The position numbers were made by a program, and so were the translations under genes. Positions 12,275 through 57,005 of a stretch of 64,000 nt of DNA are shown here, piece after piece; position 1 is the stretch's first letter; every line of letters starts with the position of its first letter. The DNA comes from Cymodocea nodosa. Its lineage: Eukaryota; Streptophyta; Magnoliopsida; Alismatales; Cymodoceaceae. Below the pieces are notes generated by a model. That model did no database searches and was not told the origin of the DNA. It was given only the letters and a program-made list of their open reading frames with translations. Location: the NCBI GenBank assembly GCA_036874045.1, contig CM072347.1, positions 1,862,501 to 1,926,500 of the forward strand, read 5' to 3'.

Positions 12275-15200
12275 TCATCTCCCCACTTCTTTGGTAATGT
12301 CGGTTGTAGGCAAGATGCCTCCTCCATAAGTAACAGAAGCAGGAATGGTCGGCCTCATCTTTTCGAGCTCATTGAAATACCAATCTGACATGTAGGCTTG
12401 TTTGGTGGGGATTTCTCCAAGCTCAGCGTTGCCCACAAGCATCGCCACCACATGAGACATGGACGGGCGGAGGTGTGGTTTAAGTTGGGTGCACAAGAGA
12501 GCCACCCCCATCATTCTGCGAACCTCTTCTTCCTCATATGACGAAAGTGTTGGGTCTATCAATTCCATGTTGTGGTCCTCCTCATGGAGTCGCCAGGCCT
12601 TCAACAAAGACATCCAAGTGTTGTAAACATTACTACTTATATATTGGTACTGGCATCACTTGTACATACAAGTACATGGAAAGTACCCATTCTAGGAGAT
12701 ACTGCTTCTCTTCCTCCAAGCAGGCGTTGGTGCTCGGCCTCCCAGATATGATCTCAAAAGCAACAACCCCGAAAGCGAATGTATCGGCCTTTTCTGTCAA
12801 ACGACCTCTCATTGCATACTCTGGCGCAAGATAACCACTGTAAAAAGATAAAAACAACAAAACACCATGTTGGTGGTGGTCGATTGATTATATAACTACA
12901 AGGTCGATTTAATTTAATCACTGGATGCGTACATGGTGCCGGCAACCCCAGTGCTGATGTGGGTCATGCGATCGTCATAGAGCTTTGCGAGGCCGAAGTC
13001 AGATATCTTGGGGTTGAGTTCGACATCAAGGAGGATGTTGCTAGCCTTGATGTCCCTGTGGATGATGCGTATGTTTGATTCCTCGTGCAAGTAAGCCAAG
13101 CCTCTAGCTGTGCCCAAGCAAATCTTGAAGCGTGTCGCCCAATCTAGGTGCGAACCGTTCTTACCTGTGACCATCATCCACACAACAAAAATATGCACTA
13201 TTTCATTCCTCTATTCCAACATAAATCCCATTCTACAAAACATCTTTGGTACGATAATTTAACATTCTATCTTCAAATTTATGAAGATTTTTATTTAATA
13301 GCAAGATATATAATATATAGATATATATATATATTATATAGACAATCTTACAATCTAGCATTTTTGAATTATAAAGAAATAACTAATCAAATAATGGTTT
13401 TATAGAATTTTTCTTTTAATTTTAATGGTAGCTTGTTATTACATAATATTCTAAAAGTATCACTCCACTTTATCCATTATACTTTAATTCTATCAATAGC
13501 ATCCTTTATAATTTTGGAAGTATAGGAGTGGCATGGGGGTGATCAGTGGTTGTGATGAATTTCTACCATCCCAAAAAAAAGACCAAGAATCGGAGTATGT
13601 ATGTCTACTTTGGGTGCATACCAAAAAGAAATCTATTAAGACTTCCATTTTCCATGTATTCATAGACTAGGAGCCTGTTGTCTTTTTCAACGCAGCAACC
13701 AAGCAATTTTACAAGATTTCGATGTTTGATTGCTGATATGGTGGCAGCCTCGGTGACAAACTGTTTTTTCCCTTGAAGTGAAGAAAACGAGAGTTGCTTC
13801 ACAGCCACTGGGGTTCCATCATTAACTATGCCCTGATAAAGAAAAATTTGACACATCCACACATCAGCATAGAATATTTTTAGATCCCTCATATTTGGAA
13901 CTGGTGGCAGGTAGGGCATGGAAACTATGGAAACCATGAATATGAAATATCAGCTTAATTTGCAGTGCTTTAATTTAGCAGACTGTGATGAAACTTGGAA
14001 ACTTGGGAAACGATTCTCACAGATACAAGTGCACCGCTACTTTGAAAGTTGCGTAAATAATTAAAAAATTTTGAGTTGTTTACGTAAGAATCAATGGATT
14101 CATCCACGTACATGAAATTGGAACAAAGAGAAATGATTCATATGACGTCTAAAGTGGCGCTACATTAGTTATACAAATTATTTTAACAGGCCTGCATATT
14201 TCAAATGGAAGAAATTCAGCAAATTAAACTGCTTAAGAAATCCAAGATTCAGGATAATTGGATTAGACGTTTATTGATTGTTAACTACATTTGCTGGAAA
14301 GAGAAAACTCACTTTAATAAGGTTACCGTACTTTGGAATTTAATTGCAGAATTGGAGGTTCATGGCTAATTGGTAGCATCAGCATATAGATGCACATGAT
14401 AAACATGCACTTTCTAGAAAATACAAACCAAAGAGACTAAGAAATTTTATGCTATAGGTGATCTTCTGAATGCAATATGTTCTAAAAACTAGTCCATAAA
14501 ATTTAGTTGAGAGTTGTGGCAACAATTCCTCCGTTGGAATTTTTAAGGTTTTCCTTTTATTATTGAATTAAAGCTTGGATGCCACCAATCATAAATAGAG
14601 AATTGGTAAGAAATACGATCAAGGAAAGTACAAATTTTAAATATACACTTTACTAGTTCTAAGAGTAATTGGTAATGTTTTTCTATAAGGATCACCTTAA
14701 AGACAGCTCCAAATCCCCCCATGCCAAGTTTATTTGCTTCATTAAATTTTTTTGTAGCTCTTTTCAATTCAGCATAGCTGAAACTCTTTGGAATTGTAGC
14801 CAATCCATATAACTCTGCATTTTCAAAAAGGCCATGTCAAGTAGAAGCTAACACTTTGCAATGAACATCATTGTGTTGCATGTCTAACCATGTCGACTAA
14901 AAATAATTTATTTAGCATCATCAAGAATATAATTACCTTCGCCCTCATCCATGTTCACTTCCCTCTTTCTTCTCCATACACAAACTCCTATGATACAGAG
15001 TGAAAAACAAGATACAATACCAACTATAATTCCAACAATTAAAGCAGTTTTATTCCTTTCTGAAGTATTGTTTGGTGGTTGATTGCTGACAGTTGGCTTG
15101 AAATCTGAAAAAACAGCATAAGTGGATTTTTCTCATATTATAAATATTAAATGATATTAAAAGATGATATATATTTGTAATAAGTAAGATTTTTCAAAAA

Positions 15201-18200
15201 TTAACCAATAATTTTGTACCTTACACATTTTAAAAAGAAGATGTCTCATTTGCATCATATTAATTGCATCAAATACATATGATATGGAAAATATTTATAT
15301 ATCATATCCAAATATATTGAAAATTTAAATAATTTTAAATTTTATCTAAGAACAGTGCGATACTTTACATTGCATACAATTTGAAGTTCATACGTAGAAG
15401 TAGTGTGGTATTTTATGTTGCAAACATTTTCTAAACTTAGAGCATAATAATATTTTTTATTGTGAATAATTTTAAGCTTATATTTAGAAGTAACGTAACA
15501 TTTTTATATTTTAAAAATTTGAAACTTCTATCTAAAAATATAAATATATTATTTTAGATAATTGAATACATACATATATACGTACATAAGACAATGCTGC
15601 TGTAGGTGCCCACAACAGCATCCAGCTCTCTTTTTTTTTAAATGTAAAGTTTTTTTTTTTTTATGTAAAAATTTTGCGCAAACAAGTAAAAATAGGCCTT
15701 ACATTTTGATTAACAAAGGCTAAACCACTCATTCTGACGGGAAAAGGCATAAAGCAGTAAAAAATACATACCTGGGGTGACACTAATAGCTGATATTAAT
15801 GGTCCATAGTAACCTTGTGTGGGAAGACAACAAGTACCCTTTCCTGCCCAAAAGAAGTGGATTTCAAGAAAATTATTGATGACCCTAGCTTTGTACTGCC
15901 TCTTGATTGCTCTGAAGGGAACTCCACCAGCTTCCTTTTTAATATCGAAGTCTCTAACCGTGAGATTCCCCTAAGGCACATTACAGTAAGAAAAGTCATA
16001 ATATGCATGAGAAACTCACTCTTGCTGCTTTAAAACTTAAATAGTACATGAGTAGTAGGTTTGTCGAATTTTGCAAGAAAAGATTCGCCATAATTTTTAA
16101 TCTGACTTGTAATTTTAGCATCATTTTTTGATATATGTGCAAGGAAACTTTTCATGACTTAGTTCTAAAATAATTGGATTATTTCAAACTAAATCATTGA
16201 TTCATTCAAAACATATAAAATATATTCTAAGATCTATCTTTTATATTATTTAAAACATATATTATATTTATATGATATAATAAATATATTTTATAACATA
16301 TGTAAATATTTTATATTTGTATATTATAAATAAATTATTATGTTATATCACATATTTTACGTTTAAAAACATAAATATTTAAAATAATCTATATTATATC
16401 ATATAAGGAATGTACATGTAATTATATATGTTATATTTATAGATATATAACTATTTATTGTTGGAAGAAAGGAATATTGGTGAAAGTATAAGGATTTCTT
16501 AAGCAAATATAAGACTTCTATATATAGGAGGTTACGTAAATATAACTAGTACAACAATATCAATGTGGAGCTAAACCCATATATACAAACTTAAATCCCT
16601 AATACATTATTTTCTAGTCATATGCATACCTGAATGTAAATGTCGAATATCCGTCTCCTAGAGCTCTTCTTTAAGCCATGGTCATTAGTAAAAGCAATTT
16701 CTGCAAATTGAAGTTCCACATTGTATGCTCCATTTTCCATCCCTAGACCATAATATCTCAGTGAAGATGGTGATAACCTTGCAGTCTGAAATAGACCTGG
16801 ATCTAAAGTGTTCATGATCTTGGACAAACTACTTTGTTCGTATTCAGGATTTTGAGATTCAATAAATGTTTCAGTGCTACTAACTGCCCACCTTTTAGTG
16901 TATCTTACAAAATATGATGTAGTAATTAAGTTGTGATTGTCGGCCTCATAGTTTGTGTCATCAGATGATATAATTCCAACACCACCACAGTTTATGGCAA
17001 AGGAGTAATCTGCAAAGTAGTGGTAGTAGATTTAACGTTTATTAATTAAACAAATAATGGTAGAAATTTTCCATGTTCCCATGAATTGGTAATATTCTTG
17101 TACAAACAATGAAAAAAATACTTACATCTTGGATTATTACGATGGCATGGGAAATTTCGTTGCAAGCAGTCCAAACCCTTGGGCATGACACTAAAAATAC
17201 AAGAATAGGATATGTTAAGCACATAAATATTGCATAAAAATTTTGTAATTTCATTTACATAAAGGTAGAAGGGGTGCAGGTAAGCACTTGTAGAAATCAT
17301 CAATGTCAAAATTGTTGGCAACCAAGTTCCTGTACAGAAAATAACAAAAAAGCCGAAGTAATTATAAAAGAACAACAACAATGACATGTAAAATAGCATT
17401 CTCACCTAAAGTTTCATTATTTATTTTACGAAGTAGTTTTCTTATAAATTGTACAATTAAATAATCGACTAGTAGGATTAGCTTTACAAAAATTCAGGGA
17501 TCCATTTTATTTATGGAATGAAGTTTCTTACCGTTTGTTGCAGAAGATGGTTAGCAATAGCAACAAAATAAAAAAGCAGCAAGTAAACACATTACAATTG
17601 AAGATTCTTTTGAGCAGCCCAAGGAGGAATACGTCCCGATAGTTCATTGTAGGATAGATCACTGCAAACAGTAGAGAATATCATGTTTCTCTATCAAACA
17701 CTAAGTAAAGATATACAAATAAAAGGTGAGATGGCATGTCATACATATTTAAAAGAGTTCCAGACTTCTTTCTTGGTACATTACCAGAAATGCTATTATT
17801 TCCAAGAAATCTGTAGCGCGATATGAAATTATTAGCAACACAAAGAAGACCTTTCAATTAGGAACGTAAAAGTTTAATTCACTCACAGGTATTCAAGTGA
17901 CTTCATATTAAAAAGATTAGGTGGAAGCGTGCCTGTGAGATTATTGAAGCTCAGATCCCTGAAATGATCAAAAACTCAAGATAACGAGAAACTTTGATTT
18001 GCAGTTTGATGTAAAGGAAAATAAAATGAAATAAACAACACTCACAGATGTTTCATTTTTTGAAACTTCCCGATGTCAGTTGGAATGACATCAGAAATCT
18101 TAGCATTTCTCAAGATCCTGTTAAAACATGAATAGGATTCTAGTAATTCGTGATATCCTCAAAATCGAATATTGATATTTTACAAAAGAGAATAAGAGAG

Positions 18201-21200
18201 AGCGAATTTTTGATAATCTTACAAGGTGGACAACGATTTCATATTTGCAATAAATGCCAAAGATGAGGTGCCATTTGACAGGTCACCAATACGCCTAAAT
18301 CAATAATGCATCAAATGAAAAATGGAGCACCTAACTTCAAAATAAACATAGGGAATATTTAATGCTTGTTAGGAATTTACTTGCTTTCCTTTATGATACT
18401 ACAACCACTACAAATAGTTATTCAAGACCTTATAGTAAGCATACTTACAGTTCTTGAAGACCTTGAAGATTACCAAGACATGAAGGAATAGGACCTTGAA
18501 AGGAATTGCCTTGAAGGCCCCTACGGTAGGTGTAAGGTAAGTAAGTAGTTAGCCATTGTATAATTTACATGGAATGACAATATAACATAAGACGGGTATA
18601 ACAAGTAATGTCGTAAAAATTTCTTCTTACAAGGATCGAAGGTTTGTTAAATTTCCAAGAAACTCTGGAACTTTTCCTCCAAAATCATTGTCAAATGCAG
18701 TCCTGTAGTGAGAACAATGTAGACAATCATTTATATTTTCATGTAAAAGCCTTGAGTAGCCTTGTCGTTATGACTTTGATAAATGTTAAAAATTTACATG
18801 ATCTTCAACTTCTTAAGCTTTGCAAATGTTGGTGGAATTTCTCCACTGACTCCCATACTGTCTATATAACTGTTGAAAAAGAAAAAAGTTAGATGATGAT
18901 TTCCCATTTATGGATTTACCACAAAATGTTAACAACTTCCGTGATAGAAATTTCTAGACACTTGCATTTGCTCTAGGCTTTTCAAGTTCCCAAGCTCTGG
19001 TGGAAGCGAACCACTGAAGTTATTCATCCCCATACCTCTGCAAATAGAAAATACTCATCAAACATTAAGTGCCTTTGTCATAGTAAAATGTGCGCACACT
19101 ACTATCAGAATGTATGCTGTGCCCACAATTAAAGGATAATTTATTTATCTCACAGTGAAATAAGTTCTGGAAGTTTTCCAAGCTCCTTTGGTATAACTCC
19201 TGATAATGCATTTTTACCTATGCTCCTTTAGCATAAAGAAGTAAAATATTAATCCGTAGATACAAAAATGAAACCAGCCATTCACGGTAGTACTACATTT
19301 ATTTATATATAAAACTTACAAGTTTTTCATTGCCGAAAAGTTTCCAATGAATGCTGGCAGAGGACCAACCAAGTAATTATCAGCAATTTGTCTGCAATTT
19401 AGAAAAATTTAACATATATTGGAATGAGCCCAATAAATTTTTGAAAATAATGTTTTTCACTAGAAGCACCTAAAAACCTTTTGTAATTGGTTTTAAAAAG
19501 AAAAAGAGTACTCATAGGTTATATTGATATTTTACAAGGGATAAGTGTGAAGGAGCAATTATTAATATTAAAATTATAAGAAGAGAAATTAAAAAATTTC
19601 CAAAAATCATAGGTTTACACTAGGGGTCCTCTTCAAGTCTGTATTTAATTGTGCATGAAATAACTAAAGAAATGTAAGAGAAATATCCTAACGTATATCA
19701 TTTGCTAAGTAAGTTAAGAATTAGTCCTAAATTAAAATAATAGAGAGATATTTTACGGTTCAAAGGATTTAAAATGTGAAGATAATAAATGCGAAAATAA
19801 ATTTTATTTATGTTGTCAAATACCCAGTTAAACGTGATCCGTACCTTATTTTTATTTATACAAAAATAATATAGCCACATCCTAATTTGTATTTATCTTA
19901 TAAATATTTAAGAATTGGAAACGAATAAAAATAGTATAATGCTTGACATTAGTTCGTTTTTAATCATTCTTGAATTATAATTTATTCGATCATTTTAATT
20001 TTTCATATCTGGCATGCATTTATATTAGTGTTCATATTCTAAAAATAAAAACAAATATGGGTATGGCAAGTCATACATCCAATCCATACTTGATTCCATC
20101 TGGAACTAAAACGTATTGACCCAAACTTACTTGAGACTGGCATTCAAGGAAACAAATCGACACACATTAATTCTAGGAGATGTGTCTGAGTTGTCATGGA
20201 TTCGTGGGGCCCACAAATGACATGGCAAGTAGGTTGGCATGTCAAATGATGAACATGCAATGTATGATTAGGCCTATGCTTGTATAGTTGTATGGTTGGT
20301 CATCTGCTTGACAATAAAAACGTGAGACTCATGATTGTCCAAGCCAAACCCCAGTTCCCCATGTTTTTGTATCTTGAATTGGGTAATCGATCCAGTGAAT
20401 GCCATTCGATTGATGGATTGTCATGATGCACAACCGTCAATCAGGTAAAGTGTCTTATTTACTAAAATTTTTTGTGATGAACATTATTGGATCAGATGCA
20501 AAATAAGAGTTTGAATTTTGGTCATTCAAATCAAGATCCAAATTTAACTATAAACTGAAATACACTAAAAAAAAGGATTATGTTATATATCAACATAAAT
20601 AAGATTGGTTGATACATGTTGTGTCGGTATACGAAGCAATTTGGCGCATATTTTGTTTATTTTGAATGACCCATGAGATATACTTTAGCATTTGTATTAT
20701 GGTGTAAATTAATAGAAATCATATGCTTACGGTGAAACATGCATATAGATGTTAAAAAATGCATATTTTACTTAAATTGTAAGAATTGCATTATTTGATA
20801 TCATGCAACCATTTATTGACATGTGCTTTGTGAATGTAACATTTGCATGATTAGATAATTATAGTATGACTAACGAATTCGACTACATGGGTCAATTCAT
20901 AGTATCATACGCATAATTATGATTATGGTAGTCAACTTTTAGACTTAATTGTAGAGCACATATGTGACTTTAAACAACACATACCATTTTTGTAAGCATA
21001 TATGGATTACTACACTAAATCATTGAAGAGAAGTAGATTTATCTACACGTATGAATGTTGAGTACAACACATACCATTTTTGGGAGCTTGCAGTACTTGA
21101 AATTTAAAGGAGTATAATCAAAACGACTTACAGGTCATCTAGCTTTGAAAAAGTCTTGAGCTCATCTGGAATAGTCCCCGTGATATTTAATTTAAATGCA

Positions 21201-21984
21201 GTCCTAATTATAAACAATAAGATCCGTGAGGAACAATACAAGATAACAGAAAAGAGAGGTACAAGTACATCTTCACAAACTCTATTGCAAATGGAAATTC
21301 CTCAAAAAATTAAAAACCTGTATGATGGATAATTAGCAAAGTTGTTATAAATAACTCACAGTCTGATGATATGGCAAGTAGAGCCATTGTTGCTGCTACA
21401 ATCACACAAGATGGATGGATTGAATAAATCATAGTTATCCCTAATTTTGTCGTCGGCTGTTATGGCGTAGCCCGTGCAAGGATCACCGTTGCCAGTGTCA
21501 TTCCAAGGTAGCTTGGACATGGTGGATGAGATGTTCCACTTCCTGAAAATGGAGTTCAACGCCTCAACTGCACAATATATAAGAGGATCGGAGCTTGTTA
21601 GCAATTATTCTCCAAAACTCTTGCAAATTAAACAATAACTTGTGCATGTATATACACACACACATACACTCGTACACACATATATATGGTACATACATGA
21701 CTGGTTGATCTGAAAAGGTCCGGAGGAGGAAGAAGTAGTGAATGGATATTCATACCTTCAGTTGGGTCAGTTCTTCTGGGGGAAGACGGTGGGCTGCTCT
21801 GGGCAATTGCATGGTGGTGGTGGAGAAAGAGAGTGGCAGCAATATTGAAGATTATTAAGGGTAAGGAACACATGCGTGGTGGAGTTGCTGTTTTTCCTGC
21901 AATACTCTTCTTCCTCATCATCTCTGGAGATGTACAAGAAGGAAGGAGGGAGAACGCTAAGGAACGAGGAGTTGAATCCATCAC
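12275..21984 (-). CDS. Gene 2: LRR-malectin receptor-like kinase (LRR-VIII-2), complete
   Basis: 24 exons joining to 3,180 nt (1,059 aa): 21984-21756, 21567-21360, 21203-21132, 19391-19320, 19225-19154, 19037-18966, 18869-18798, 18702-18631, 18520-18449, 18294-18223, 18117-18046, 17958-17887, 17810-17745, 17661-17596, 17329-17288, 17190-17126, 17009-16630, 15970-15772, 15104-14937, 14814-14696, 13832-13622, 13164-12933, 12837-12687, 12598-12275. Residues 1-76 hold the signal region, with a hydrophobic core after Met38; Met38 or Met22/23 could be the real start. LRR N-cap is 77-145, LRRs 146-443 (ten 72-nt exons, then 66, 66 and 42), malectin about 466-658, membrane helix about 679-702. Kinase: ATP loop GMGGFG 745-750, VAVK Lys766, HRD Asp862, DFG Asp880, APEY, so an RD kinase with all key residues. 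Length and exon order match the Arabidopsis At1g56140 type. The intron after exon 6 has a GC donor. The ligand is unknown. Confidence 0.9.
15105..15771 (-). other. Long intron 18 of gene 2
   Basis: This intron is 667 bp and AT-rich. It is shared at the same length with gene 4 (49,090-49,756), whereas genes 1 and 3 have 119 bp. It separates the malectin end from the membrane-helix exon. No coding sequence or element was recognised; it is an informative marker of exchange between genes 2 and 4. Confidence 0.8.
15971..16629 (-). other. Intron 17 of gene 2, lacking the copia insert
   Basis: This intron is 659 bp. The part at about 16,140-16,610 is strongly AT-rich (runs such as TATATTATA) and does not resemble the copia remnants found in the same intron of genes 1, 3 and 4. 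Confidence 0.75.
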
Positions 21985-24659
21985 TGGTACACCTTTAATA
22001 GATAGAACAACACTTCAACGAAAGCAAACGTAAAAATAATAAATTACAAACATCAACACCGCTTTCAACTTTCGAAAGGCAGTCGAGAAGTTACCAGGAA
22101 ATGGATTTATTAATTTCGTTTGACTTTCATTGTTTTAGTTTTATCATGAAACTACCGATCGCGAAATGTGTGGTAAAATTCGATTTGCATTAATATTAGC
22201 GTTTGATTTCTTTGCAATGGTGACCAATATATATATATTAAGGTCTATTAACTAATTTATTGTGCTTCTGCAAAACATTTTCTATCTCCCTTATGGGTTT
22301 TGCAAGATAAAAAAATTTGATTAAGGTTTTGCAACTGAATGAATTTATTAATTAATTTTACCTTTAGGTGAGAAATTTATTTCAGTTTCAAATAATAATG
22401 TTTTTAGCAAAAATGATGAAGACTAGCTAAATTATTCGAAGGTAGGTTGGACATAATGGATGCGATATTCCACTTCCTAAATATCAAGATCCTCAACATT
22501 CTTTTTAATTAAACAGCATCCATACATGTACGTGTGCCGTACCTTCAGCTGGGTCAGTTCTACTTCTCGGAGAGAAGACGCTAGACGCGTTTGTTTTAAA
22601 AGCTCTTAAATGTAACTTTTTAACATTTTCTATTTTAAAAGCTTCATACAACGCATTACATATGTTTCATTTTCAACGTCGTTTTCCTTGAAGCCATTTG
22701 CCGTGTGTTTAAAAAGTCCAACTAGAATTGGTACTATTGACGATTGATTTCTTCGATGAGGGACAAGGGCAACCTTTGCACCCTGTGCAAGAGGAGATGA
22801 ACGGATTTTTGTTGTGGTTTTGTATGATTTGAAATTAATTTTTTCTCTTATATATTTTGTATGATAAGAAAAGTTTATTGACTGGTTTTAAACTCAGAGA
22901 GAAGTCGACACTGCTACGGCTACTCGAGAAGTTTCCGAGAAATGAATTTATTTTGTTTGTCATTTGTACGTGACAGTCTACGCTACTTTCAAATAATAAT
23001 GTGGATCAAGAAAAGTCTAACGCAAATTTATATTGTTTTGCTTTGCCACTTGTCATGAATCCCCAAACAATTAATGTGTCACAAAATTCAACTTACACTA
23101 ATACTAATTATAATCAAAAGGATTTGAAAAGTTTGATATTCAGATTTAGATTAGAAATAGACAGAAGAGACCTCTCAAACTTCATGTGGTCGATAATATT
23201 TATTGTAAATAAATGTGACTTATGTAAATATTTTTTGCAAGATTTATTTTCATAGACCGATTTTAAACTTGCGATGAAAAATATAAACTTCCTTATCGTC
23301 CAGTTGTACCCCGTTCAATGGTGTTTACACTCGTCGAGTTGCTTATAATTTTATATTTTTTATTTTATTGCAAGAAAGAAAAACCTAAAGTTTACTTGAT
23401 TATTTATTAGTTAGAAGGTCATTGCAATAACAAAGTTCCTTTTTGACATTGAAATATAATCTAGCATTTTTAAAATTTGCCTCAGACGAAACGTAAGCGG
23501 TTTTTTGGTCTTTGTCAATAAGTTTATTTATCACTAGAGATTAATTTGCAGCTACATTTGTGCTCTTTTTCAGTCATTATTCACATTCTAATTTATCATT
23601 ATCTTATTTTTTTTGTCATTTCCTTGAAATCACTTAGGATATATAGTTGAAAAGGTCCAACCAACCAGCATTGATATTAACAAGTAATAGATATAAAAAT
23701 ATGAAAATGAATTTGTTTTGTTTGGCTTTCATTGTCTTCATGAAACTACTGGTCACAATACGTGTGAGAAATTTCAATTTGCATTAATATTAACATTTGA
23801 TTTCTTTGGAATATATATGCAACTGCGTCAATAGCAAATTAAGGTCTATTAATTAATTTATTGTGTTTCTGCAGTTATCGCTGAAGTCAACATGTTCTAT
23901 CTCTCTCGTAGATTTTGCAAGACTAAAAAAAAATTGATTAAGGTTTTGCAACCGAATGAAAATTAATTAATTTTACCTTTAGGTAAGAAATTTTAATGTA
24001 ATAAAGATTTATTTCACTTTCAAATAATAATGCTTTGAGCAAAAATGACAAAGACCATCTAAAGAAGTCCTCGTGACAGGGATTCGCGTTGTTTAACATT
24101 TATATATTGTCAAAAAATCTAGCTGCCATTGAAGTTAACAATTTATTTATTTATTTTTCTTTTCGCGTGAGAGGAAATTACAAGAATGGGTATCTTTGGT
24201 ATTTTTGTTATATTTCAACTCATGTTTAAGTTATTTCTTGCGGATTTTCTATGATATAAAAATTGGTTAGTGGTAATTTTTTATGTTATTATTTTTTTTT
24301 TTTTTTTGATCCTCTTTAGACACGCATCGATAACAGGTAAGTTAGGTAGATGGTATACATAATTACAATTTGTCATCTTGATTTTACTTATGTTCAAACA
24401 TAATTAATTTTAAAGTTATTACAAAAGTAGGTGTTTAGTAGTAGATGTAAATGTATTTGGTTAGTGTTATTGGTAGTTGGTTTTGCAACTAAATGAAAAT
24501 TTATTTTACCTTTAAATTATATTTTTTATTATATAAAATTTTATTCGACGTAGGTACCTTTAGATAATAAATTTTTATTACACAAATATTTATTTTACTT
24601 TTAAATAATAAAAATAAAAATATAGATATAGAAAGATTATAATATATGTATATATTATA
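21985..24659. repeat. Upstream flank of gene 2 (module copy 2)
   Basis: From exon 2 of gene 2 (21,360) to about 24,000 this region matches 39,263-41,950 at a constant offset of 17,903 bp with few differences, marking a recent duplication or conversion tract. It includes the decayed exon 1-2 fragment at about 22,440-22,600 and the conserved open stretch 23,001-23,255. No separate gene is supported. Confidence 0.75.
22440..22600 (-). pseudogene. Fossil exon 1-exon 2 fragment upstream of gene 2
   Basis: On the minus strand the end of an exon 1 is readable (SRTDPAEG, then GTACGG as donor, boundary at 22,543; gene 2 itself has RTDPTEG). After a short intron-like gap comes an exon 2 start (VEDL..., RKWNIASIMSNLPSN) with a 5-nt deletion and an in-frame stop. 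Matching fossils lie before genes 3 and 4. It is a relic of an older tandem copy. Confidence 0.7.
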
Positions 24660-26430: not shown

Positions 26431-26607
26431 ACAAAAGGATGTATGGATGGATGGATGGAAAACTTCTCCTCAACAAAAGGTATATTGGGTGGAAGCAAAA
26501 ACACAGACAATTTGGCTGCACGTATGGATGGAAGCTTGATTTTACTTAATCCCATGTAATGTGGAAGACCACGTCGGAAATGATTTCTAATGTATATAAA
26601 ACCTAAT

Positions 26608-44250: not shown

Positions 44251-44454
44251 ATTGTTTTGTTATGTTTGGAATAATATGTGAACTCTTTAGTTGTATTATG
44301 TTTTTATGTTAGTTGTCTTTAGAAGTAGTGAATATGTTACCTTCTATTTTTTCCCCAATTACGAAACTCATGTTTTCTTTCCCAAGTGCTTATTTCATTT
44401 ATGAATGTTTCTATTATTGAATGTGATCCTCACACATAAAAGAATGTTGATATT

Positions 44455-44660: not shown

Positions 44661-44679
44661 TATTTGAAGGTGATAGAGG

Positions 44680-45170: not shown

Positions 45171-45225
45171 TTGATGCGGAACCAATTTAACCTTTGTAGG
45201 TTGTGCAAGAGTTTTTGTTAGGTTT

Positions 45226-46226: not shown

Positions 46227-49200
46227 TCATCTCCCCACTTCTTTGGCAATGTCGGTTGTAGGCAAGATGCCTCCTCCATAAGTAACAGAAGCAGGGATGG
46301 TCGGCCTCATCTTTTCAAGCTCGTCGAAATACCAGTCTGACATGTAGGCTTGTTTGGTGGGGATTTCTCCAAGTTCAGCATTGCCCACAAGCATCGCCAC
46401 CACACGAGACATGGATGGGCGGAGGCGTGGTTTAAGCTGGGTGCACAAGAGAGCCACCCCCATCACTCTGCGAACCTCTTCTTCCTCGTAAGACAAAAGT
46501 GTTGGGTCTATTAGCTCCATGTCGCGGTCCTCCTCGTGGAGTCGCCAGGCCTTCAACGAAGACATCCAAGTGTTGTAAACATTACTACTTATATATTGGT
46601 ATTGGCATCACTTTTACATACAAGTACGTGGAAAGTACCCATTCTAGGAGATATTGCTTCTCTTCCTCCAAGCAGGCGTTGGTGCTCGGCCTCCCAGATA
46701 TGATCTCAAAAGCAACAATCCCGAATGCGAATGTATCAGCCTTTTCTGTCAAACGACCTCTCATTGCATACTCTGGCGCAAGATAACCACTGTAAAAAGA
46801 TAAAAACAACAAAACACCATGTTGGTGGTGATCGATTGATTATATAACTACAAGGTCGATTTAATTTAATCACTGGATGCGTACATGGTGCCGGCAACCC
46901 CAGTGCTGATGTGGGTGATGCGATCATCGTAGAGCTTTGCGAGGCCGAAGTCAGATATCTTGGGGTTGAGGTCGACATCAAGGAGGATGTTGCTAGCCTT
47001 GATGTCCCTGTGGATGATGCGTATGTTTGATTCCTCGTGCAAGTAAGCCAAGCCTCTAGCTGTGCCCAAGCAAATCTTGAAGCGTGTCGCCCAATCTAGG
47101 TGCGAATCGTTCTTACCTGTGACCATCATCGACACAACAAAAATATGCACTATTTCATTCCTCTATTCCAACATAAATCCCATTCTACAAAACATCTTTG
47201 GTACGATAATCTAACATTCTATCTTCAAATTTATGAAGATTTTTATTTAATAACAAGATATATAATATATAGATATATATATATATATATATATATAGAT
47301 ATAAAGAATGGGATTTTTCTAGCATTTTTGAACTATAAAGAAATAACTAATCAAATAATGGTTTTATAGAATTTTTCTTTTAATCTTAATGGTATCTTGT
47401 TATTACATAATATTCTAAAAGTATCACTCCACTTTATCCATTATACTTTAATTCTATCAATAGCATCCTTTATAATTTTGGAAGTATAGGAGTGGCATGG
47501 GGGTGATCAGTGGTTGTGATGAATTTCTACCGTCCCAAAAAAAAGACCAGGAATCGGAGTATGTATGTCTACTTTGGGTGCATACCAAAAAGAAATCTAT
47601 TAAGACTTCCATTTTCCATGTATTCATAGACTAGGAGCCTGTTGTTTTTTTCAACGCAGCAACCAAGCAATTTTACAAGATTTCGATGTTTGATTGCTGA
47701 TATGGTGGCAGCCTCAGTGACAAACTGTTTTTTCCCTTGAAGTGAAGAAAACGAAAGTTGCTTCACAGCCACTGGGGTTCCATCATTAACTATGCCCTGA
47801 TAAAGAAAAATTTGACACATCCACACATCAGCATAGAATATTTTTAGATCCCTCATATTTGGAACTGGTGGCAGGTAGGGCATGGAAACTATGGAAACCA
47901 TGAATATGAAATATCATCTTAATTTGCAGTGCTTTAATTTAGCAGACTGTGATGAGACTTGGAAACTTGGGAAACGATTCTCACAGATACAAGTGCACCG
48001 CTACTTTGAAAGTTGCGTAAATAATTAAAAAATTTTGAGTTGTTTACGTAAGAATCAATGGATTCATCCACGTACATGAAATTGGAACAAAGAGAAATGA
48101 TTCATATGACATCTAAAGTGGCGCTACATTAGTTATACAAATTATTTTAACAGGGCTGCATATTTCAAATGGAAGAAATTCAGCAAATTAAACTGCTTAA
48201 GAAATCCAAGATTCAGGATAATTGGATTAGACGTTTATTGATTGTTAACTACATTTGTTGGAAAGAGAAAACTCACTTTAATAAGGTTACGGTACTTTGG
48301 AATTTAATTGCATAATTGGAGGTTCATGGCTAATTGGTAGCATCAGCATATAGATGCACATGATAAACATGCACTTTCTAGAAAATACAAACCAAAGCGA
48401 CTAAGAAATTTTATGCTATAGGTGATCTTCTGAATGCAATATGTTCTAAAAACTAGTCCATAAAATTTAGTTGAGAGTTGTGGCAACAATTCCTCCGTTG
48501 GAATTTTTAAGGTTTTCCTTTTATTATTGAATTAAAGCTTGGATGCCACCAATCATAAATAGAGAATTGGTAAGAAATACGATCAAGGAAAGTACTAATT
48601 TTAAATATACACTTTACTAGTTCTAAGAGTAATTGGTAATGTTTTTCTATAAGGATCACCTTAAAGACAGCTCCAAATCCTCCCACGCCAAGTTTATTTG
48701 CTTCATTAAATTTTTTTGTAGCTCTTTTCAATTCAGCATAGCTGAAACTCTTTGGAATTGTAGCCAATCCATATAACTCTGCATTTTCAAAAAGGTCATG
48801 TCAAGTAGAAGCTAACACTTTGCAATGAACATCATTGTGTTGCATGTCTAACCATGTCGACTAAAAATAATTTATTTAGCATCATCAAGAATATAATTAC
48901 CTTCGCCCTCATCCATGTTCACTTCCCTCTTTCTTCTCCATACACAAACTCCTATGATACAAAGTGAAATACAAGATACAATACCAAATATAATTCCAAC
49001 AACACCAACTATAATTCCAACAATTAAAGCAGTTTTCTTCCTTTCTGAAGTATTGTTTGGTGGTTGATTGCTGACAGTTGGCTTGAAATCTGAAAAAACA
49101 GCATAAGTGGATTTTTCTCATATTATAAATATTAAATGATATTAAAAGATGATATATATTTGTAATAAGTAAGATTTTTCAAAAATTAACCAATAATTTT

Positions 49201-52200
49201 GTACCTTACACATTTTAAAAAGAAGATGTCTCATTTGCATCATATTAATTGCATCAAATACATATGATATGGAAAATATTTATATATCATATCCAAATAT
49301 ATTGAAAATTTAAATAATTTTAAATTTTATCTAAGAACAGTGCGATACTTTACATTGCATACAATTTGAAGTTCATACGTAGAAGTAGTGTGGTATTTTA
49401 TGTTGCAAACATTTTCTAAACTTAGAGCATAATAATATTTTTTATTGTGAATAATTTTAAGCTTATATTTAGAAGTAACGTAACATTTTTATATTTTAAA
49501 AATTTGAAACTTCTATCTAAAAATATAAATATATTATTTTAGATAATTGAATACATACATATATACGTACATAAGACAATGCTGCTGTAGGTGCCCACAA
49601 CAGCATCCAGCTCTCTTTTTTTTTAAATGTAAAGTTTTTTTTTTTTTATGTAAAAATTTTGCGCAAACAAGTAAAAATAGGCCTTACATTTTGATTAACA
49701 AAGGCTAAACCACTCATTCTGACGGGAAAAGGCATAAAGCAGTAAAAAATACATACCTGGGGTGACACTAATAGCTGATATTAATGGTCCATAGTAACCT
49801 TGTGTGGGAAGACAACAAGTACCCTTTCCTGCCCAAAAGAAGTGGATTTCAAGAAAATTATTGATGACCCTAGCTTTGTACTGCCTCTTGATTGCTCTGA
49901 AGGGAACTCCACCAGCTTCCTTTTTAATATCGAAGTCTCTAACCGTGAGATTCCCCTAGAGCATTATAGCAAGAAAAGTCTTAATATGCGTAAGAAATTC
50001 ACTCTTACTGGTTTAAAATTTAAATAGTACATGACTAGCAAGTTTAACACAAAAGAAATATAAGGTAAAATTAGAAATAAGTTTAAATAGTATAGACTTA
50101 AAAGAAATAGATAGGGTAAAATTGTGAAATGTAGGGTGAAGTCTAACACAGAATATAAAATTAGAAATAAGATAGATTGTGCAAGATCTTTTATTCATTG
50201 ACAATGCAATTGGGTCCCCAAGCTTTGAGGTGATGGGAATTGATGTGCCTAGGCTTGCATTCATGGTTGAGGGTAATTCTACCAAAGGGAGAGTTGATTC
50301 CCACTATCAACAATGATATACCTACAATGAATGATAAGCTTGGTTGTTCACAACCTCAAAATTACTATTAATTGGTACAACAATTGGTTGGGAAGGATTT
50401 TTAGGTGGTATCTCATTAGACTGAGATTGTGATTCAAAAAATGTGACAGTAGATGCATAATATCTCCTGTTAAGAGAATGAAAATGGTGATACTCCTCTT
50501 GTATGTGAAAAAAAATGTCCATTTATATATAGAGAGAGTGGATGTGTAATGGACCCCTAATGTAATTGGATATCCATTTAGTCATTCATCTGATTGCCTA
50601 TATGATACTCTTACACAAACAAAGTGAATTCAATTAATATATTGTTAATGCCTATTTCATAGAATCCCAGAAGTGTCTTTAATATCTTTCTTGTTATTAT
50701 AGATAGAGAGTTAGATATGATTTAATTGCAATTCAAAGTTTCCAAATAAGCCTTAAATCTGACCCTCCATTTTCTTTTCAATGCTGGAGTTAAAGAAATG
50801 GACCTCACTAATCAATATCAACAATAAGAGACAATCAAAAAGTCCAAATACAAGGGCCATCTATTTAGTTTTATTAATGTGTAATTCAGAGTCCATGTAG
50901 CATCTGACACATTTGTGGTAGAGGAGGAAGCCCTTTTTGCATGGATGAGACCAAATGTGCCCAACAATGAAAGAATCCAATGATGTTGATGTGAGAGTAG
51001 TGACTGAAATGGTAAGCAGATAGTTAGGTGCAAGTATGAGGATTGCCTATTCATAAAAAATCAACAATGAAAGTGGTGGAGCTTAAGAAATTTCTTAGGT
51101 GGTAACTGGGAGATGGGGTCTTGTTCTTATTATTGGTTATAGGTTGTTGGTGGTGTCAAGAGCCCATATAGGCTGACAGTAGTGGTGGAGTACCTTCTAG
51201 GGGTTGGCAGCACCAACTAAAAGAACCTTAGGAGATGACGGCCATGACAAAAAGCTCCCTTGGGCTTGGTGGTTGTCATGGCAGAAGGGAAGAGAAGGAA
51301 GAAACTGTCAAAGAGAAATTCAGGGGTCTCTATTACCATACATTGCATGGATGTCCATATAACCATTCCATTCAATAACTTTTTTTCATACCAATTCTTG
51401 TAGTCACATGCATACCTGAATATAAATGTCAAATATCCGTCTCCCAGAACTCTTCTCTAAGCTATGGTCATCGGTAAAAGCAATTTCTGTAAATTGAAGT
51501 TCCACATTGTATGGTCCATTTTCCATCCCTAGACCATAATATCTCAGTGAAGATGGTGATAACCTTACAGTCTGAAATAGACTTGGATCTGAAGTATTTG
51601 TAGCATAGGACGAACTGCTCTGTTTGTATTCAGGATTTTGAGATTCAATAAATCTTCCAGTGCTACTAACTGCCCACCTTTTAGTGTCTCTTACAAAATA
51701 TGATGCAGTAATTAAGTTGTGATTGTCGGCCTCATAGTTTGTGCCATCAGATGATATAATTGCAACACCACCACAGTTTATGGCAAATGAGTAATCTGCA
51801 AAGTAGTGGTAGTAGATTTAACGTTTATTAATTAAACAAATAATGGTAGAAATTTTCCATGTTCCCATGAATTGGTAATATTCTTGTGCAAACAATGAAA
51901 AAAATACTTACATCTTGGATTATTACGATGGCATGGGAAATTTCGTTGCAAGCACTCCAAACCCTTCGGCATGACACTAAAAATACAAGAATAGGATATG
52001 TTAAGCACATAAATATTGCATAAAAATTTTGTAATTTCATTTACATAAAGGTAGAAGGGGTGTAGGTAAGCACTTGTCGGAATCATCAATGTCAAAATTG
52101 TTGGCAACCAAGTTCCTGTACGGAAAATAACAAAAAAGCCGAAGTAAATAAAAGAATAAGTTTTGCTGAGCACAATCTCAAAAGGAATTATAAAAGAACA

Positions 52201-55200
52201 ACGACAATGACATGTAAATTAGCATTCTCACCTAAAGTTTCATTATTTATTTTACGAAGTAGTTTTCTTATAAATTGTACAATTAAATAATTGACTAGTA
52301 GGATTAGCTTTACAAAAATTCAGGGATCCATTTTATTTATGAAATGAAGTTTCTTACCGTTTGTTGCAGAAGATGGTTAGCAATAGCAAAAAAATAAAAA
52401 AGCAGCAAGTAAACACATTACAATTGAAGATTCTTTTGAGCAACCCAAGGAGGAATACTTCCCGATAGTTCATTGTAGGATAGATCACTGCAAATAGTAG
52501 AGAATATCATGTTTCTCTATCAAACACTAAGTAAAAATATACAAATAAATGGTGAGATGGCATGCCATACATATTTAAAAGCTTTTCAGTCTTCTTTCTT
52601 GGTACATTACCAGATATGCTATTATTTCCAAGAAATCTGTAGTGCGATATGAAATTATTAGCAACACAAAGAAGACCTTTCAATTAGGAAATTAAAAGTT
52701 TAATTCACTCACAGGTATTCAAGTGACTTCATATTAAAAAGATCAGGTGGAAGCGTGCCTGTGAGATTATTGAAGCTCAGATCCCTGAAATGATCAAAAA
52801 CTCAAGATAACGAGAAACTTTGATTTGCAGTTTGATGTAAAGGAAAATAAAATGAAATAAACAACACTCACAGATGTTTCATTTTTTGAAACTTCCCAAT
52901 GTCAGTTGGAATGGCATCAGAAATCTTAGCATTTCTCAAGATTCTGTTAAAATGGCATTCCAGTAATTTGTAAAATCGAATATTGATATTTTACAAAACA
53001 GAATAATAGAGAGCAAATTTTTGATAATCTTACAAGGTGGACAATGACTTCATATTTGCAATAAATGCCAAAGACGAGGTTCCATTTGAGAGGTCACCAA
53101 GACGCCTAAATCAATGCGTCAAATGAAAAAGGGAGGAGCAACTAACTTCAAAATAAACATGGGGAATATTTAATGCTTGTTAGGAATTTACTTGCTTTCC
53201 TTCATGCCACAACATCGACTACAAATAGTTATTCATCATGTGGAAACCTATGCAATTCAAAAGTAAGCATACTCACAGATCGATCAGACCTTGAAGATTA
53301 GCAAGACTTGAAGGAATAGGACCTTGAAAGGAATTGCCTTGAAGCCTCCTACAACAGGTGTGAAGCTAAGTGAGTAGTTAGCCTTTCATGACAATATAAC
53401 AAGTAATGTCGTAGAAATTTCTTCTTACAGGGTTTGAAGATTTGTCAAATTTCCAAGAAACTCAGGAACTTTTCCTCCAAAATTGTTGTCAGATGCAATC
53501 CTGTAGTGAGAACAATGTAGACAATCATTCATATTTTCATGTAAAAGCCTTGAGTAGCCTTGTCTTTATGATTTGGTTAAATGTTAAAAATTTACATGAT
53601 CTTCAACACCTTAAGCTTTGCAAATGTTGATGGAATTTCACCACTAACTCCCATACTGTCTATATAACTGTTGAAAAAGAAAAAAGTTAGATGATGACCC
53701 TGTCTTCCCTTTTGTGGATTTACCACAAAATGTTGACAAGTTCCGTGATAGAAATTTCAAAACACTTGCATTTTCTCTAGGCTTTTCAAGTTCCCAAGCT
53801 CTGGTGGAAGCGAACCACTGAAGTTATTCATCCCCATACCTCTGCAAGTGGAAAATACTCATCAAACCTTAAGTGCCTTTGTCATAGAAAAATGTGCGCA
53901 CACTAGTATCAGAATATATGTTGTGCCTACAATTAAAGGATAATTTATTTATCTCACAGTGAAATAAGTTCTTGAAGATTTCCAAGCTCCTTTGGTATAT
54001 CTTCTGATAATGCATTTTTACCTATGCTCCTTTAGCGTAAAGAAGTAAAATATTAATCCGTAGATACAAAAATGAAACCAGCCATTCATAGTAGTACTAC
54101 AATTATTTATATATAAAACTTACAAGTATTTCATTGTCGAAAAGTTTCCGATGAATGCTGGCAGAGGACCAACCAAGTAATTATCAGCAATTTGTCTGCA
54201 ATTTAGAAAAATTTAACATATATTGGAATGAGCCCAATAAATTTTTGAAAATAATGTTTTTCACTAGAAGCACCTTAAAACCTTTTGTAATTAGTTTTAA
54301 AAAGAAAAAGAGTACTCATAGGTTATATTGATATTTTACAAGGGATAAATGTGAAGGAGCAATTATTAATATTAAAATTATAAGAAGAGAAATTAAAAAA
54401 TTTCCAATAAACATAGGTTTACACTAGGGGTCCTCTTCAAGTCTGTATTTAATTGTGGATGAAATAACTAAAGAAATGTAATAGAAATATCCTAACGTAT
54501 ATTATTTGCTAAGTAAGTTAAGAATTAGTCCTAAATTAAAATAATAGAGAGATATTTTACGGTTCAAAGGATTTAAAATGTGAAGATAATAAATGCGAAA
54601 ATAAATTTTATTTATGTTGTCAAATACCCAGTTAAACGTGATCCGTACCTTATTTTTATTTATACAAGAATAATATAGCCACATCCTAATTTGTATTTAT
54701 CTTATAAATATTTAAGAATTGGAAACGAATAAAAATAGTATAATGCTTGACATTAGTTCGTTTTTAATCATTCTTGAATTATAATTTATTCGATCATTTT
54801 AATTTTTCATACCTGGCATGCATTTATATTAGTGTTCATATTCTAAAAATAAAAACAAATATGGGTATGGCAAGTCATACATCCAATCCATACTTGATTC
54901 CATCTGGAACTAAAACGTATTGACCCAAACTTACTTGAGACTGGCATTCAAGGAAACAAATCGACACACATTAATTCTAGGAGATGTGTCTGAGTTGTCA
55001 TGGATTCGTGGGGCCCACAAATGACATGGCAAGTAGGTTGGCATGTCAAATGATGAACATGCAATGTATGATTAGGCCTATGCTTATATAGTTGTATGGT
55101 TGGTCATCTGGTTGACAATAAAAACGTGAGACTCATGATTGTCCAAGCTAAACCCCAGTTCCCCATGTTTTTGTATCTTGAATTGGGTAATCGATCCAGC

Positions 55201-57005
55201 GAACGCCATTCGATTGATGGATTGTCATGATGCACAACCGTCAATCAGGTAAAGTGTCTTATTTACTAAAATTTTTTGTGATGAACATTATTGGATCAGA
55301 TGCAAAATAAGAGTTTGAATTTTGGTCATTCAAATCAAGATCCAAATTTAACTATAAACTGAAATACACTAAAAAAAAGGATTATGTTATATATCAACAT
55401 AAATAAGATTGGTTGATACATGTTGTGTCGGTATACGAAGCAATTTTGGCGCATATTTTGTTTATTTTGAATGACCCATGAGATATACTTTAGCATTTGT
55501 ATTATGGTGTAAATTAATAGAAATCATATGCTTACGGTGAAACATGCATATAGATGTTAAAAAATGCATATTTTACTTAAATTGTAAGAATTGCATTATT
55601 TGATATCATGCAACCATTTATTGACATGTGCTTTGTGAATGTAACATTTGCATGATTAGATAATTATAGTATGACTAACGAATTCGACTACATGGGTCAA
55701 TTCATAGTATCATACGCATAATTATGATTATGGTAGTCAACTTTTAGACTTAATTGTAGAGCACATATGTGACTTTAAACAACACATACCATTTTTGTAA
55801 GCATATATGGATTACTACACTAAATCATTGAAGAGAAGTAGATTTATCTACACGCATGAATGTTGAATACAACACATACCATTTTTGTGAGCTTGCAGTA
55901 CTTGAAATTTAAAGGAGTATAATCAAAACGACTTACAGGTCATCTAGCTTTGAAAAAGTCTTGAGCTCATCTGGAATAGTCCCCGTGATATTTAATCTGG
56001 TTGCAGTCCTAATTATAAACAATAAGATCCGTGAGGAACAATACAAGATAACAGAAAAGAGAGGTACAAGTACATCTTCACAAACTCTATTGCAAATGGA
56101 AATTCCTCAAAAAATTAAAAACCTGTATGATGGATAATTAGCAAAGTTGTTATAAATAACTCACAGTCTGATGATGTGGCAAGTAGAACCGTTGTTGCTG
56201 CTACAATCACACAAGATTGATGGATTGAATCTCACGTAGTCATACCAAATTTTGTCATCTGCTGTTATGGCGTAGCCCGTGCAAGGATCACCGTTGCCAG
56301 TGTGATTCCAAGGTAGCTTGGACATGGTGGATGAGATGTTCCACTTCCTGAATATGGAGTTCAACGCCTCAACTACACAACAGAAGGAGTTTGTTGTGTT
56401 CAAAACTCTTTTCAACAATAGAGAATATACATATTCAACAGAAGTAGTTTGTTATTGCTCAAAACTCTTTTTAAACTACAACGTAAATACATATATATAT
56501 ATATACGTACACGTACACATACATGTTCATGTACATATGTGTGCGTATTCACACATACATACACATATAAATAGACATGTACATATACAAATACATACAC
56601 ATATATTCCCTGAAAAATCACCTACAAAGCCACACGCGCACACACACACACACACAAACGGGGTGGGAAGAAAGGTAGAGAGAAAATCAGAATAGCTCCT
56701 AATAAGGAGTGAGAGGAGAAGGAGGAAGAAAGAACCTGTGATGAATGAATATTCATACCTTCAGTTGGGTCCGTTCTGGGAGAAGACGATTGGCTGCTCT
56801 GGGCACCTGCATGGTGGAGGAATAGAGTGGCAGCCAAATTGAACATTACGAAGGCTAAGGAGCACAGACGTAGTGGAGAAAAGCTGGCTGCTGCAGCTAC
56901 TGTTGTTCCTGCAGTACTCTTCATCTCCATCATCATCATCGTCATCTTCGAAGAGGAACGACGAGCAAGGAAGAAGGCTAAGGAACGAGGAGTTGAATCC
57001 ATCAC
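46227..57005 (-). CDS. Gene 4: LRR-malectin receptor-like kinase (LRR-VIII-2), complete
   Basis: 24 exons, 3,219 nt, 1,072 aa: 57005-56759, 56372-56165, 56008-55937, 54195-54124, 54029-53958, 53841-53770, 53667-53596, 53500-53429, 53348-53277, 53105-53034, 52943-52872, 52784-52713, 52636-52571, 52487-52422, 52115-52074, 51976-51912, 51795-51416, 49955-49757, 49089-48901, 48778-48660, 47796-47586, 47116-46885, 46789-46639, 46550-46227. Architecture and kinase motifs are as in gene 2 (ATP loop GVGGFG; HRD, DFG, APEY present). The N-terminus differs most: 82 codons in exon 1 with a Met-rich tract. The membrane-helix exon carries an in-frame 21-nt tandem duplication, giving a hydrophobic run of about 31 residues against 24 in gene 2. 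The kinase half and 3' flank are nearly identical to gene 2, the malectin region to gene 3. Confidence 0.9.
50030..51180 (-). mobile_element. Truncated copia remnant in intron 17 of gene 4
   Basis: Matches the remnant in gene 3 at a constant offset of about 17,758 bp, with the same truncation and only scattered substitutions. Pre-RT ([13 protein letters not shown]) and linker ([11 protein letters not shown]) pieces are readable on the minus strand. It was inherited with the segment rather than inserted independently. Confidence 0.7.
56480..56665. repeat. TA/CA-rich microsatellite tract in intron 1 of gene 4
   Basis: About 180 bp of mostly alternating purine-pyrimidine (ATATATAT, ACGTACACGTACACATAC, CACACACACACA). 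Genes 1-3 have a much shorter version in the same intron (about 8,430-8,470 in gene 1). Confidence 0.8.

What the first reader, a model, noticed from the sequence alone, without database searches (positions are those of the whole stretch)
12275..57005. Mosaic ancestry: conflicting relationships along the genes
Exons 1-2 plus upstream flank: gene 2 matches gene 3 (offset constant at 17,903). Intron 3: genes 2 and 4 alike (1,740 and 1,741 bp), gene 3 2,565, gene 1 1,305. Intron 17: genes 3 and 4 alike (1,460), gene 2 659, gene 1 2,750. Intron 18: genes 2 and 4 alike (667), genes 1 and 3 alike (119). Kinase half and 3' flank: genes 2 and 4 nearly identical. No single tree fits, so segments have been exchanged between copies.
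Basis: seen in the sequence. Interest (0 to 1): 0.7.

Follow-up and report, generated by a model that had tools for sequence, protein, structure and literature searches.

The report
Plant receptor genes that swap segments
Four neighbouring plant receptor-kinase genes are patchworks of each other and of more distant copies, so different parts of one gene have different closest relatives; this kind of segment exchange in receptor clusters is known, but here it is unusually clear and separates the sensing part from the signalling part.

Summary
The window holds four 24-exon LRR-malectin receptor-kinase genes on the minus strand (gene 1 runs off the window). The quoted intron lengths are exact. 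Sites that group the genes two-and-two are strongly blocked: 18 runs against a mean of 96 in 10,000 shuffles. Most segments reject each other's trees. In its genome the window is one end of a large cluster: 45 listed matches, all at C21 1.22-1.93 Mb, on both strands. With six more full copies, kinase halves form four lineages while upstream exons follow other partners. Gene 4 is clearest: exons 1-2 match copy B6 (99.8%), intron 4 to intron 17 match B3 (99.57% of 4,172 columns), the kinase half matches B4a (99.41%), with one switch confined to 14 bp at the intron 17/exon 18 junction. Between kinase lineages, synonymous divergence is 0.40 in the kinase but 0.11-0.14 in LRR exons. Best explanation: repeated ectopic gene conversion plus unequal crossing-over, a new case of a known kind.

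The parts
1..8764 (-). Gene 1, LRR-malectin receptor kinase, exons 1-20 in the window; exons 21-24 lie before the window (L029). Probable pseudogene.
   Evidence: Exons mapped; exon 5 both splice sites and exon 12 acceptor lost; stop codon in exon 22.
12275..21981 (-). Gene 2, 24 exons, 1058 aa, intact frame.
29214..39884 (-). Gene 3, 24 exons, 1058 aa, intact frame.
46227..57002 (-). Gene 4, 24 exons, 1071 aa, intact frame; the clearest mosaic.
   Evidence: Pfam LRR, Malectin PF11721 and kinase.
21364..23544 (-). Gene 2 promoter plus exons 1-2: gene-3 type. Upstream limit lies between 23544 and 24028.
   Evidence: 632/633, 1001/1001 and 800/801 identical to gene 3 over 21368-22000, 22000-23000 and 23000-23800; from 24028 to 24635 every listed diagnostic site follows copy B1's flank; lower end.
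39267..41447 (-). Gene 3 counterpart of the gene 2 promoter/exon 1-2 block (offset 17,903).
20530..21045 (-). Intron 3 block of gene 2, shared with gene 4; only a 36-bp edge of it matches genes 1 and 3.
   Evidence: 517 bp at 99.8% to 55334-55850.
55334..55850 (-). Intron 3 block of gene 4, shared with gene 2.
56016..57002 (-). Gene 4 exons 1-2 and most of intron 2: type of copy B6 in the opposite-strand part of the cluster.
   Evidence: 99.82% over 571 columns; exon 1 to exon 2 99.8% to B6, 79.7-79.8% to genes 1-3.
49946..54119 (-). Gene 4 replaced tract, intron 4 to the end of intron 17 (LRR exons 5-14 and exons 15-17): type of copy B3 and, less closely, gene 3. Breakpoints within 54089-54120 and 49945-49960.
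   Evidence: 208 B3-type against 4 B4a-type diagnostic sites inside; 7 against 501 on the 3' side; site list.
46227..49945 (-). Gene 4 exon 18 to stop: type of copies B4a/B4b.
   Evidence: 3695/3717 identical to B4a.
35058..35913 (-). Gene 3 exon 7 to intron 11: type of copy B6.
   Evidence: 99.87% over 773 columns; exons 9-11 100%.
12275..15104 (-). Gene 2 exon 19 to stop: kinase lineage shared with copies B5, B6 and C4, sister to gene 4's lineage.
   Evidence: Exons 21-22 and 23-24 99.1% and 99.5% to B5/B6, 97.3% and 94.7% to gene 4; tree; C4.
26443..27243 (-). Relic of a fifth gene (3' flank and last kinase exons only) between genes 3 and 2.
   Evidence: 84-92% to the ends of genes 2 and 4; also present in the other part of the cluster.
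11560..12274 (-). 3' flank of gene 2, homologous to 45499-46226 of gene 4.
   Evidence: 11560-16062 against 45499-50045, 96.3%; flank alone 90.1% of 774 aligned columns.

Best explanation
The four genes belong to a large cluster of LRR-malectin receptor kinases in a plant. Copies repeatedly exchange DNA with non-allelic copies. Internal tracts of about 0.9-4 kb are copied from one gene into another (gene-conversion-like), while unequal crossing-over and segmental duplication change the number of units. Shown: conflicting segment trees, sharp switches, an internal tract in gene 4 with mapped ends, and unit-number differences between cluster parts. Inferred: that the tracts are non-reciprocal, their direction, and their timing. 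The effect is to re-pair extracellular exons with kinase halves. Kinase halves keep clean lineages, whereas exons 1-2 carry no kinase-lineage signal. The strong divergence of introns 17 and 18 and of the kinase exons may stop tracts near exon 18 (inference).
For:: two-and-two sites in 18 runs, shuffled mean 96; dS of genes 2-3 is 0 in exons 1-2 and 0.466 in the kinase, while genes 2-4 have 0.244 and 0.105; genes 3-4 have 0.009 in exons 15-17 and 0.474 in the kinase. Rate differences along one tree do not reverse ranks in this way; incompatibility between nearby sites 0.113, overall 0.299, P 1/1001; mosaic-model gain exceeds the maximum of 100 single-tree simulations in 8 of 10 copies; 39 of 42 cross AU tests reject at 0.05, while the two kinase segments accept each other; mean dS within and between kinase lineages is 0.137 and 0.122 in exons 1-2 against 0.017 and 0.403 in exons 21-24; gene 4 tract with both ends mapped; gene 4's outer flank (58.5-64 kb) is 98.6-100% to the corresponding flank of the other part; of six copies with gene 2/4-type kinase only gene 4 has the 1,460-bp intron 17, the other five have 658-659 bp; exon positions of a seventh, C4, give 660; gene 2 switch between 23544 and 24028.
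Against: Donor and recipient cannot be told apart by sequence alone; gene 4 as recipient rests on parsimony over few copies. Gene 4's 5' side (54120-57002) is itself mixed (180 B3-type, 53 B4a-type, 4 other sites; 83.3% to B3, 79.5% to B4a), so its tract is not flanked by one simple backbone. Exons 4-8 with introns do not resolve the four-gene tree. The number of painted switches is not higher than in single-tree simulations (81 against mean 98.9); only the likelihood gain and the incompatibility pattern discriminate. Two of ten copies (B4a, B4b) are twins and carry no signal there. Only part of the cluster was read.
Confidence: 0.85

Rival explanations
1. Unequal crossing-over and block duplication alone, with breakpoints inside genes, made chimeric genes; no conversion tracts are needed.
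For: Unit numbers differ between cluster parts: by the offsets the gene 2 unit is extra in the window and a 16.7-kb gene-4-type unit is extra in the other part. The block from gene 1's 5' end to gene 2's 3' end resembles that from gene 3's 5' end to gene 4's 3' end.
Against: One duplication date would give even divergence, but genes 2-4 differ by 0 of 667 in intron 18 and about 10% in the aligned 3' flank. Gene 4 carries an internal 4.1-kb tract, needing two switches inside one gene, and still has the corresponding outer flank.
Confidence: 0.08
2. Assembly chimerism, or two haplotypes laid into one contig, fakes the mosaics.
For: Near-identical copies exist on one contig in opposite orientation, two of them listed at 100% (rounded) over 1,001 bases. 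Reads were not available.
Against: No N in the window or in the 28 loci then held. At the 3' switch of gene 4 the nearest sites where the two parent types differ are 15 bp apart, with dense differences on both sides, too short a shared stretch for a false overlap. A flank segment outside the genes has three near-identical copies on the contig, not two. Genes 2-4 keep open frames across their junctions.
Confidence: 0.06
3. One tree with uneven rates or selection along the gene, plus independent intron insertions and deletions.
For: Kinase exons are more diverged than LRR exons for most pairs from different kinase lineages, and intron lengths alone can mislead.
Against: Closest relatives change, not only rates: reversed dS ranks, 99-100% blocks with different partners, AU rejections. 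Single-tree simulations never reach the observed gain in 8 of 10 copies.
Confidence: 0.01

Closest known systems
OAK receptor-kinase tandem cluster of Arabidopsis (PMC3136440; passages seen)
   Same: Hypervariable tandem cluster of receptor kinases with malectin-like and LRR domains. The passages report duplications, deletions and a recent gene conversion extending from 13 bp upstream of the start codon to the first 60 bp of the kinase sequence, i.e. an ectodomain-length exchange.
   Different: In OAK the two malectin-like regions precede the LRRs; here one malectin domain (PF11721) follows the LRRs. That study compares accessions; here the exchange is read among copies of one genome, in a cluster with copies on both strands over 0.7 Mb.
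Type I disease-resistance genes (frequent sequence exchange; PMC4161772, passages seen)
   Same: Extensive chimeric structure, loss of simple orthology, duplication and deletion of copies.
   Different: Those are resistance genes of the intracellular kind; here they are membrane receptor kinases. No population sample was available.
LRR-malectin receptor kinases such as CORK1 (PMC9563578, passages seen)
   Same: LRRs, malectin domain, then kinase, in the same order.
   Different: Ligand and function of the genes here are unknown; the CORK1 sequence was not compared here.
Xa21 receptor-kinase family of rice (recalled, no text read)
   Same: Recalled as a receptor-kinase cluster with recombination between members.
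   Different: Not checked here.

Membership tests
LRR-malectin receptor kinase (LRR-VIII-2 type) | LRR region, then one malectin domain (PF11721), then protein kinase | tested here: met
   Gene 4: LRR families, Malectin 473-659, kinase 753-1017. Only gene 4 was scanned whole; exons of gene 2.
LRR-malectin receptor kinase (LRR-VIII-2 type) | Ectodomain related to a solved receptor-kinase ectodomain over its whole length | tested here: met
   9hhu_A (named only as a serine/threonine protein kinase) matched over residues 2-582 of 582, E 2e-184.
LRR-malectin receptor kinase (LRR-VIII-2 type) | Placement in the VIII-2 clade of a kinase tree | not tested
   No reference plant set at hand; that clades I and VIII-2 carry malectin or malectin-like domains was seen in PMC12382012 and PMC7318236 (passages).
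Gene conversion between paralogues | Sharp identity switches between named partners | tested here: met
Gene conversion between paralogues | Tract flanked on both sides by unchanged backbone | tested here: inconclusive
   Gene 4: 3' side B4a-type to the stop, outer 5' flank corresponding, but 54120-57002 is itself mixed.
Gene conversion between paralogues | Non-reciprocal transfer (donor unchanged) | not testable with these tools
   Needs ancestral or allelic haplotypes.
Type I-like clusters with frequent sequence exchange | Extensive chimeric structures among many members | tested here: met
   8 of 10 copies exceed the single-tree simulations; C4 is another mosaic by inspection only.
Type I-like clusters with frequent sequence exchange | Loss of allelic relationships across genotypes | not testable with these tools
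   One genome only.

The most novel reading that the evidence does not exclude
The cluster works as a combinatorial receptor generator: extracellular LRR-malectin exons circulate among a few long-lived kinase chassis by conversion, with the tract end held near exon 18 by unalike introns 17 and 18, so new sensor/kinase pairings arise without touching the signalling half.
Probability: 0.3. Interest if true: 0.6.

Novelty: new member of a known kind. Interest (0 to 1): 0.4.

Why it matters
It gives a base-level example of how a plant receptor cluster re-pairs its sensing and signalling halves, with some breakpoints mapped to tens of bases. Kinase trees would misplace the ectodomains of these genes, and ectodomain trees the kinases, so orthology and function transfer in such arrays can go wrong. 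It also offers direct test cases, since gene 4 and copy B3 share most of an ectodomain on different kinases, while gene 2 and copy B5 share a kinase under different malectin domains.

Tried and rejected
A genafpair alignment of the four loci was killed by the sandbox (memory or time limit); I used a faster and then piecewise alignments. A first exon 15/16 model broke gene 2's frame, and the same exon lengths map to the other three genes; an alternative exon 15 donor gives open frames in all four except gene 1's known lesions; no transcript supports either. Counting painted switches as evidence was rejected because single-tree simulations give as many. I considered that the two opposite-orientation parts are two haplotypes; three near-identical copies of a flank segment argue against the simplest form, but it is not excluded. 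I considered conversion directly between the opposite-strand parts for gene 4; the donor could instead have been gene 3's lineage before its exons 7-11 became B6-like, so this is left open. A special role of exon 18 as a switch point is not established: pairwise switch calls over 45 pairs are 16 in exon 18, against 57 in intron 3, 26 in exon 17, 18 in intron 1 and 17 in exon 3. The 2 = 3 block end was first put at 24273; finer sites moved it to 23544-24028. I did not try to name the species.
Full report
WHAT IS THERE. The window carries four tandem genes on the minus strand. Each has 24 exons. Exons 3-12 are 72-bp LRR exons; a malectin domain and a kinase follow. Genes 2, 3 and 4 have open frames of 1058, 1058 and 1071 aa. 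Gene 1 begins at 8764 and ends before the window. With L029 its end could be read: it has a stop codon in exon 22. Its exon 5 has lost both splice sites and exon 12 its acceptor, so it is probably a pseudogene. The exon 15 donor used here is an assumption common to all copies.

OBSERVATION. Two details need trimming. Genes 2 and 4 are 98-100% alike in exons 18-20 but 93.2% in exon 24 and 90.1% in the aligned 3' flank. The gene 2 = gene 3 block ends between 23544 and 24028 rather than at 24273.

FOUR-GENE TESTS. Over 5,826 homologous columns, 164 sites split the genes two-and-two: 94 as 13|24, 37 as 14|23 and 33 as 12|34. They fall in 18 runs; 10,000 shuffles gave mean 96 and minimum 77. The last 84 sites, from exon 18 on, are 83 to 1 for 13|24; the 26 before them, intron 12 to intron 17, are all 12|34. 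AU tests (eight stretches, one of them pooling others) favour 14|23 for the promoter to exon 2 (others P 0.003), for exons 9-11 (others 0.001 or less) and for the pooled exons 4-14 (others 0.002-0.004). They favour 12|34 for introns 11-16 (others 0.018-0.019 by AU; the KH and SH tests give 0.055) and for exon 17/intron 17 (others 5e-5), and 13|24 for exon 18 to intron 20 (others below 1e-100). Exons 4-8 with their introns reject no topology, and the stretch of introns 2-3 does not reject 13|24 (P 0.175). Synonymous divergence reverses along the gene: genes 2-3 go from 0 (exons 1-2) to 0.466 (kinase), genes 2-4 from 0.244 to 0.105, and genes 3-4 drop to 0.009 in exons 15-17 but reach 0.474 in the kinase.

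THE CLUSTER. The own genome is held: the window is C21:1862501-1926500 of a 374.6-Mb assembly in 28 contigs. A 1-kb kinase piece has 45 listed matches, all between 1.22 and 1.93 Mb of C21, on both strands; the tool calls such counts lower bounds. Much of the window has a reversed counterpart at 1.321-1.384 Mb: the outer flank from 58.5 kb on is 98.6-100% identical. By the offsets, the gene 2 unit has no counterpart between the relic and copy B1, and the other part has an extra gene-4-type unit. A flank piece outside the genes has three near-identical copies on C21.

TEN COPIES. Six more copies with all 24 exons, B4a, B4b, B3, B1, B5 and B6, were placed. As modelled, all six have frames without internal stops; B4a, B4b and B5 lack ATG at the mapped start and B5 has a GA donor at exon 6. 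Kinase halves form four lineages: g4/B4a/B4b, g2/B5/B6, g3/B3 and g1/B1. Ectodomain partners differ. Gene 4 pairs with B3 (exons 9-11 99.4%, exon 17 100%), gene 3 with B6 in exons 9-11 (100%), gene 2 with B5 there (98.9%); in exons 1-2 gene 4 pairs with B6 (99.8%) and gene 2 with gene 3 (99.8%). Gene 2 and B5 are 99.1% and 99.5% alike in exons 21-22 and 23-24 but 77.9% in malectin exon 17. Trees of seven coding segments were tested on each other's data: 39 of 42 cross-tests reject at 0.05. The three that do not are exons 12-16 with the exon 4-8 tree and the two kinase segments with each other. Between kinase lineages, mean dS is 0.122, 0.109, 0.137, 0.237, 0.148, 0.297 and 0.403 for exons 1-2, 3-8, 9-14, 15-17, 18, 19-20 and 21-24; within lineages it is 0.137, 0.073, 0.076, 0.178, 0.052, 0.041 and 0.017 (37 and 8 pairs). 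So kinase lineage says nothing about exons 1-2.

MODEL CONTROLS. On 3,875 gap-free columns (exon 1 to exon 20; introns 1, 3, 17 and 18 left out), a copying model gains more over the best single partner than the maximum of 100 single-tree simulations in 8 of 10 copies; B4a and B4b, twins, show no gain. The count of switches does not discriminate (81 observed, simulated mean 98.9, maximum 120). Incompatibility among nearby informative sites is 0.113 against 0.299 overall (P 1/1001); in 20 simulations the overall value averaged 0.072, and none of the 20 was significant.

GENE 4 IN DETAIL. At sites where B3 and B4a differ, gene 4 follows B3 at 208 of 212 sites from 54119 to 49946, and B4a at 501 of 514 sites from 49945 to 46227 (7 B3, 6 neither). 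The 3' switch lies between 49960 and 49945, at the intron 17/exon 18 junction; the 5' one between 54120 and 54089, in intron 4. Identity is 99.57% to B3 inside and 99.41% to B4a on the 3' side. Upstream, 54120-57002 is itself mixed (180 B3-type, 53 B4a-type, 4 neither; only 83.3% to B3): gene-2-like in much of intron 3, B6-like in exons 1-2. Among the six copies with gene 2/4-type kinase (g2, g4, B4a, B4b, B5, B6) only gene 4 has the 1,460-bp intron 17; the other five have 658-659 bp, and a seventh, C4, has 660 by its exon positions. This makes gene 4 the likely recipient. The donor may have been gene 3's lineage before gene 3's own exons 7-11 became B6-like; that order is inferred.

MECHANISM. 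Conversion-like internal tracts and unequal crossing-over both acted. Unit-number differences point to the second; internal tracts and uneven divergence of one supposed duplicate block (0 of 667 differences in intron 18, about 10% in the aligned 3' flank) show that the second alone is not enough. Divergent introns 17-18 and kinase exons are a plausible barrier that leaves kinase halves in clean lineages; this is inference. Pairwise switch calls by segment are more numerous in intron 3 (57), exon 17 (26), intron 1 (18) and exon 3 (17) than in exon 18 (16), so a special role of exon 18 is not established.

KNOWN KINDS. The OAK cluster of Arabidopsis is the nearest precedent seen: a conversion there runs from just before the start codon into the first 60 bp of the kinase sequence (PMC3136440, passages). 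Type I resistance genes are defined by frequent exchange and chimeric structure (PMC4161772, passages). This is a new, very clear member of a known kind.

Noticed in passing
window 1-8764 and L029: Gene 1 looks dead: exon 5 splice sites and exon 12 acceptor lost, stop codon in exon 22, and 743 bp of gene 2's proximal promoter (22000-22742) answered by only 73 bp (8782-8854). Exons 5 and 12 are 72-bp units whose skipping would keep frame.
   Followed up: partly
window 26443-27977: Relic of a fifth gene: last kinase exons and 3' flank, followed directly by an upstream-region copy, so the gene body seems deleted. The same relic lies in the other part of the cluster (C21 1372101-1372625).
   Followed up: partly
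exon 6 donor, e.g. window 18964-18965: GC instead of GT at the exon 6 donor in window genes 1-4. One search flagged GA in B5; it does not tell GT from GC in the other copies.
   Followed up: no
L010-L018 (C21 about 1225-1303 kb): A set of more diverged copies repeats three times at a 33-kb spacing.
   Followed up: no
C21 1329053-1337962 and 1345661-1354707 (L020-L023): Twin genes B4a and B4b, 99.3-100% alike in nine of ten compared segments (97.8% in exon 1 to exon 2), in a 16.7-kb repeated unit.
   Followed up: partly
window 48901-49089: Gene 4 exon 19 is 189 bp against 168 in gene 2, adding seven mostly hydrophobic residues in the likely transmembrane stretch (no membrane predictor was run).
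   Followed up: no
window 37632-38246 and 63022-63936: The extra sequence in gene 3 intron 3 resembles sequence beyond gene 4 (82-93%), probably a dispersed element.
   Followed up: no
window 61001-62500: Three near-identical copies on C21 and many weaker matches across the genome (99 listed matches), so repeat-like.
   Followed up: no
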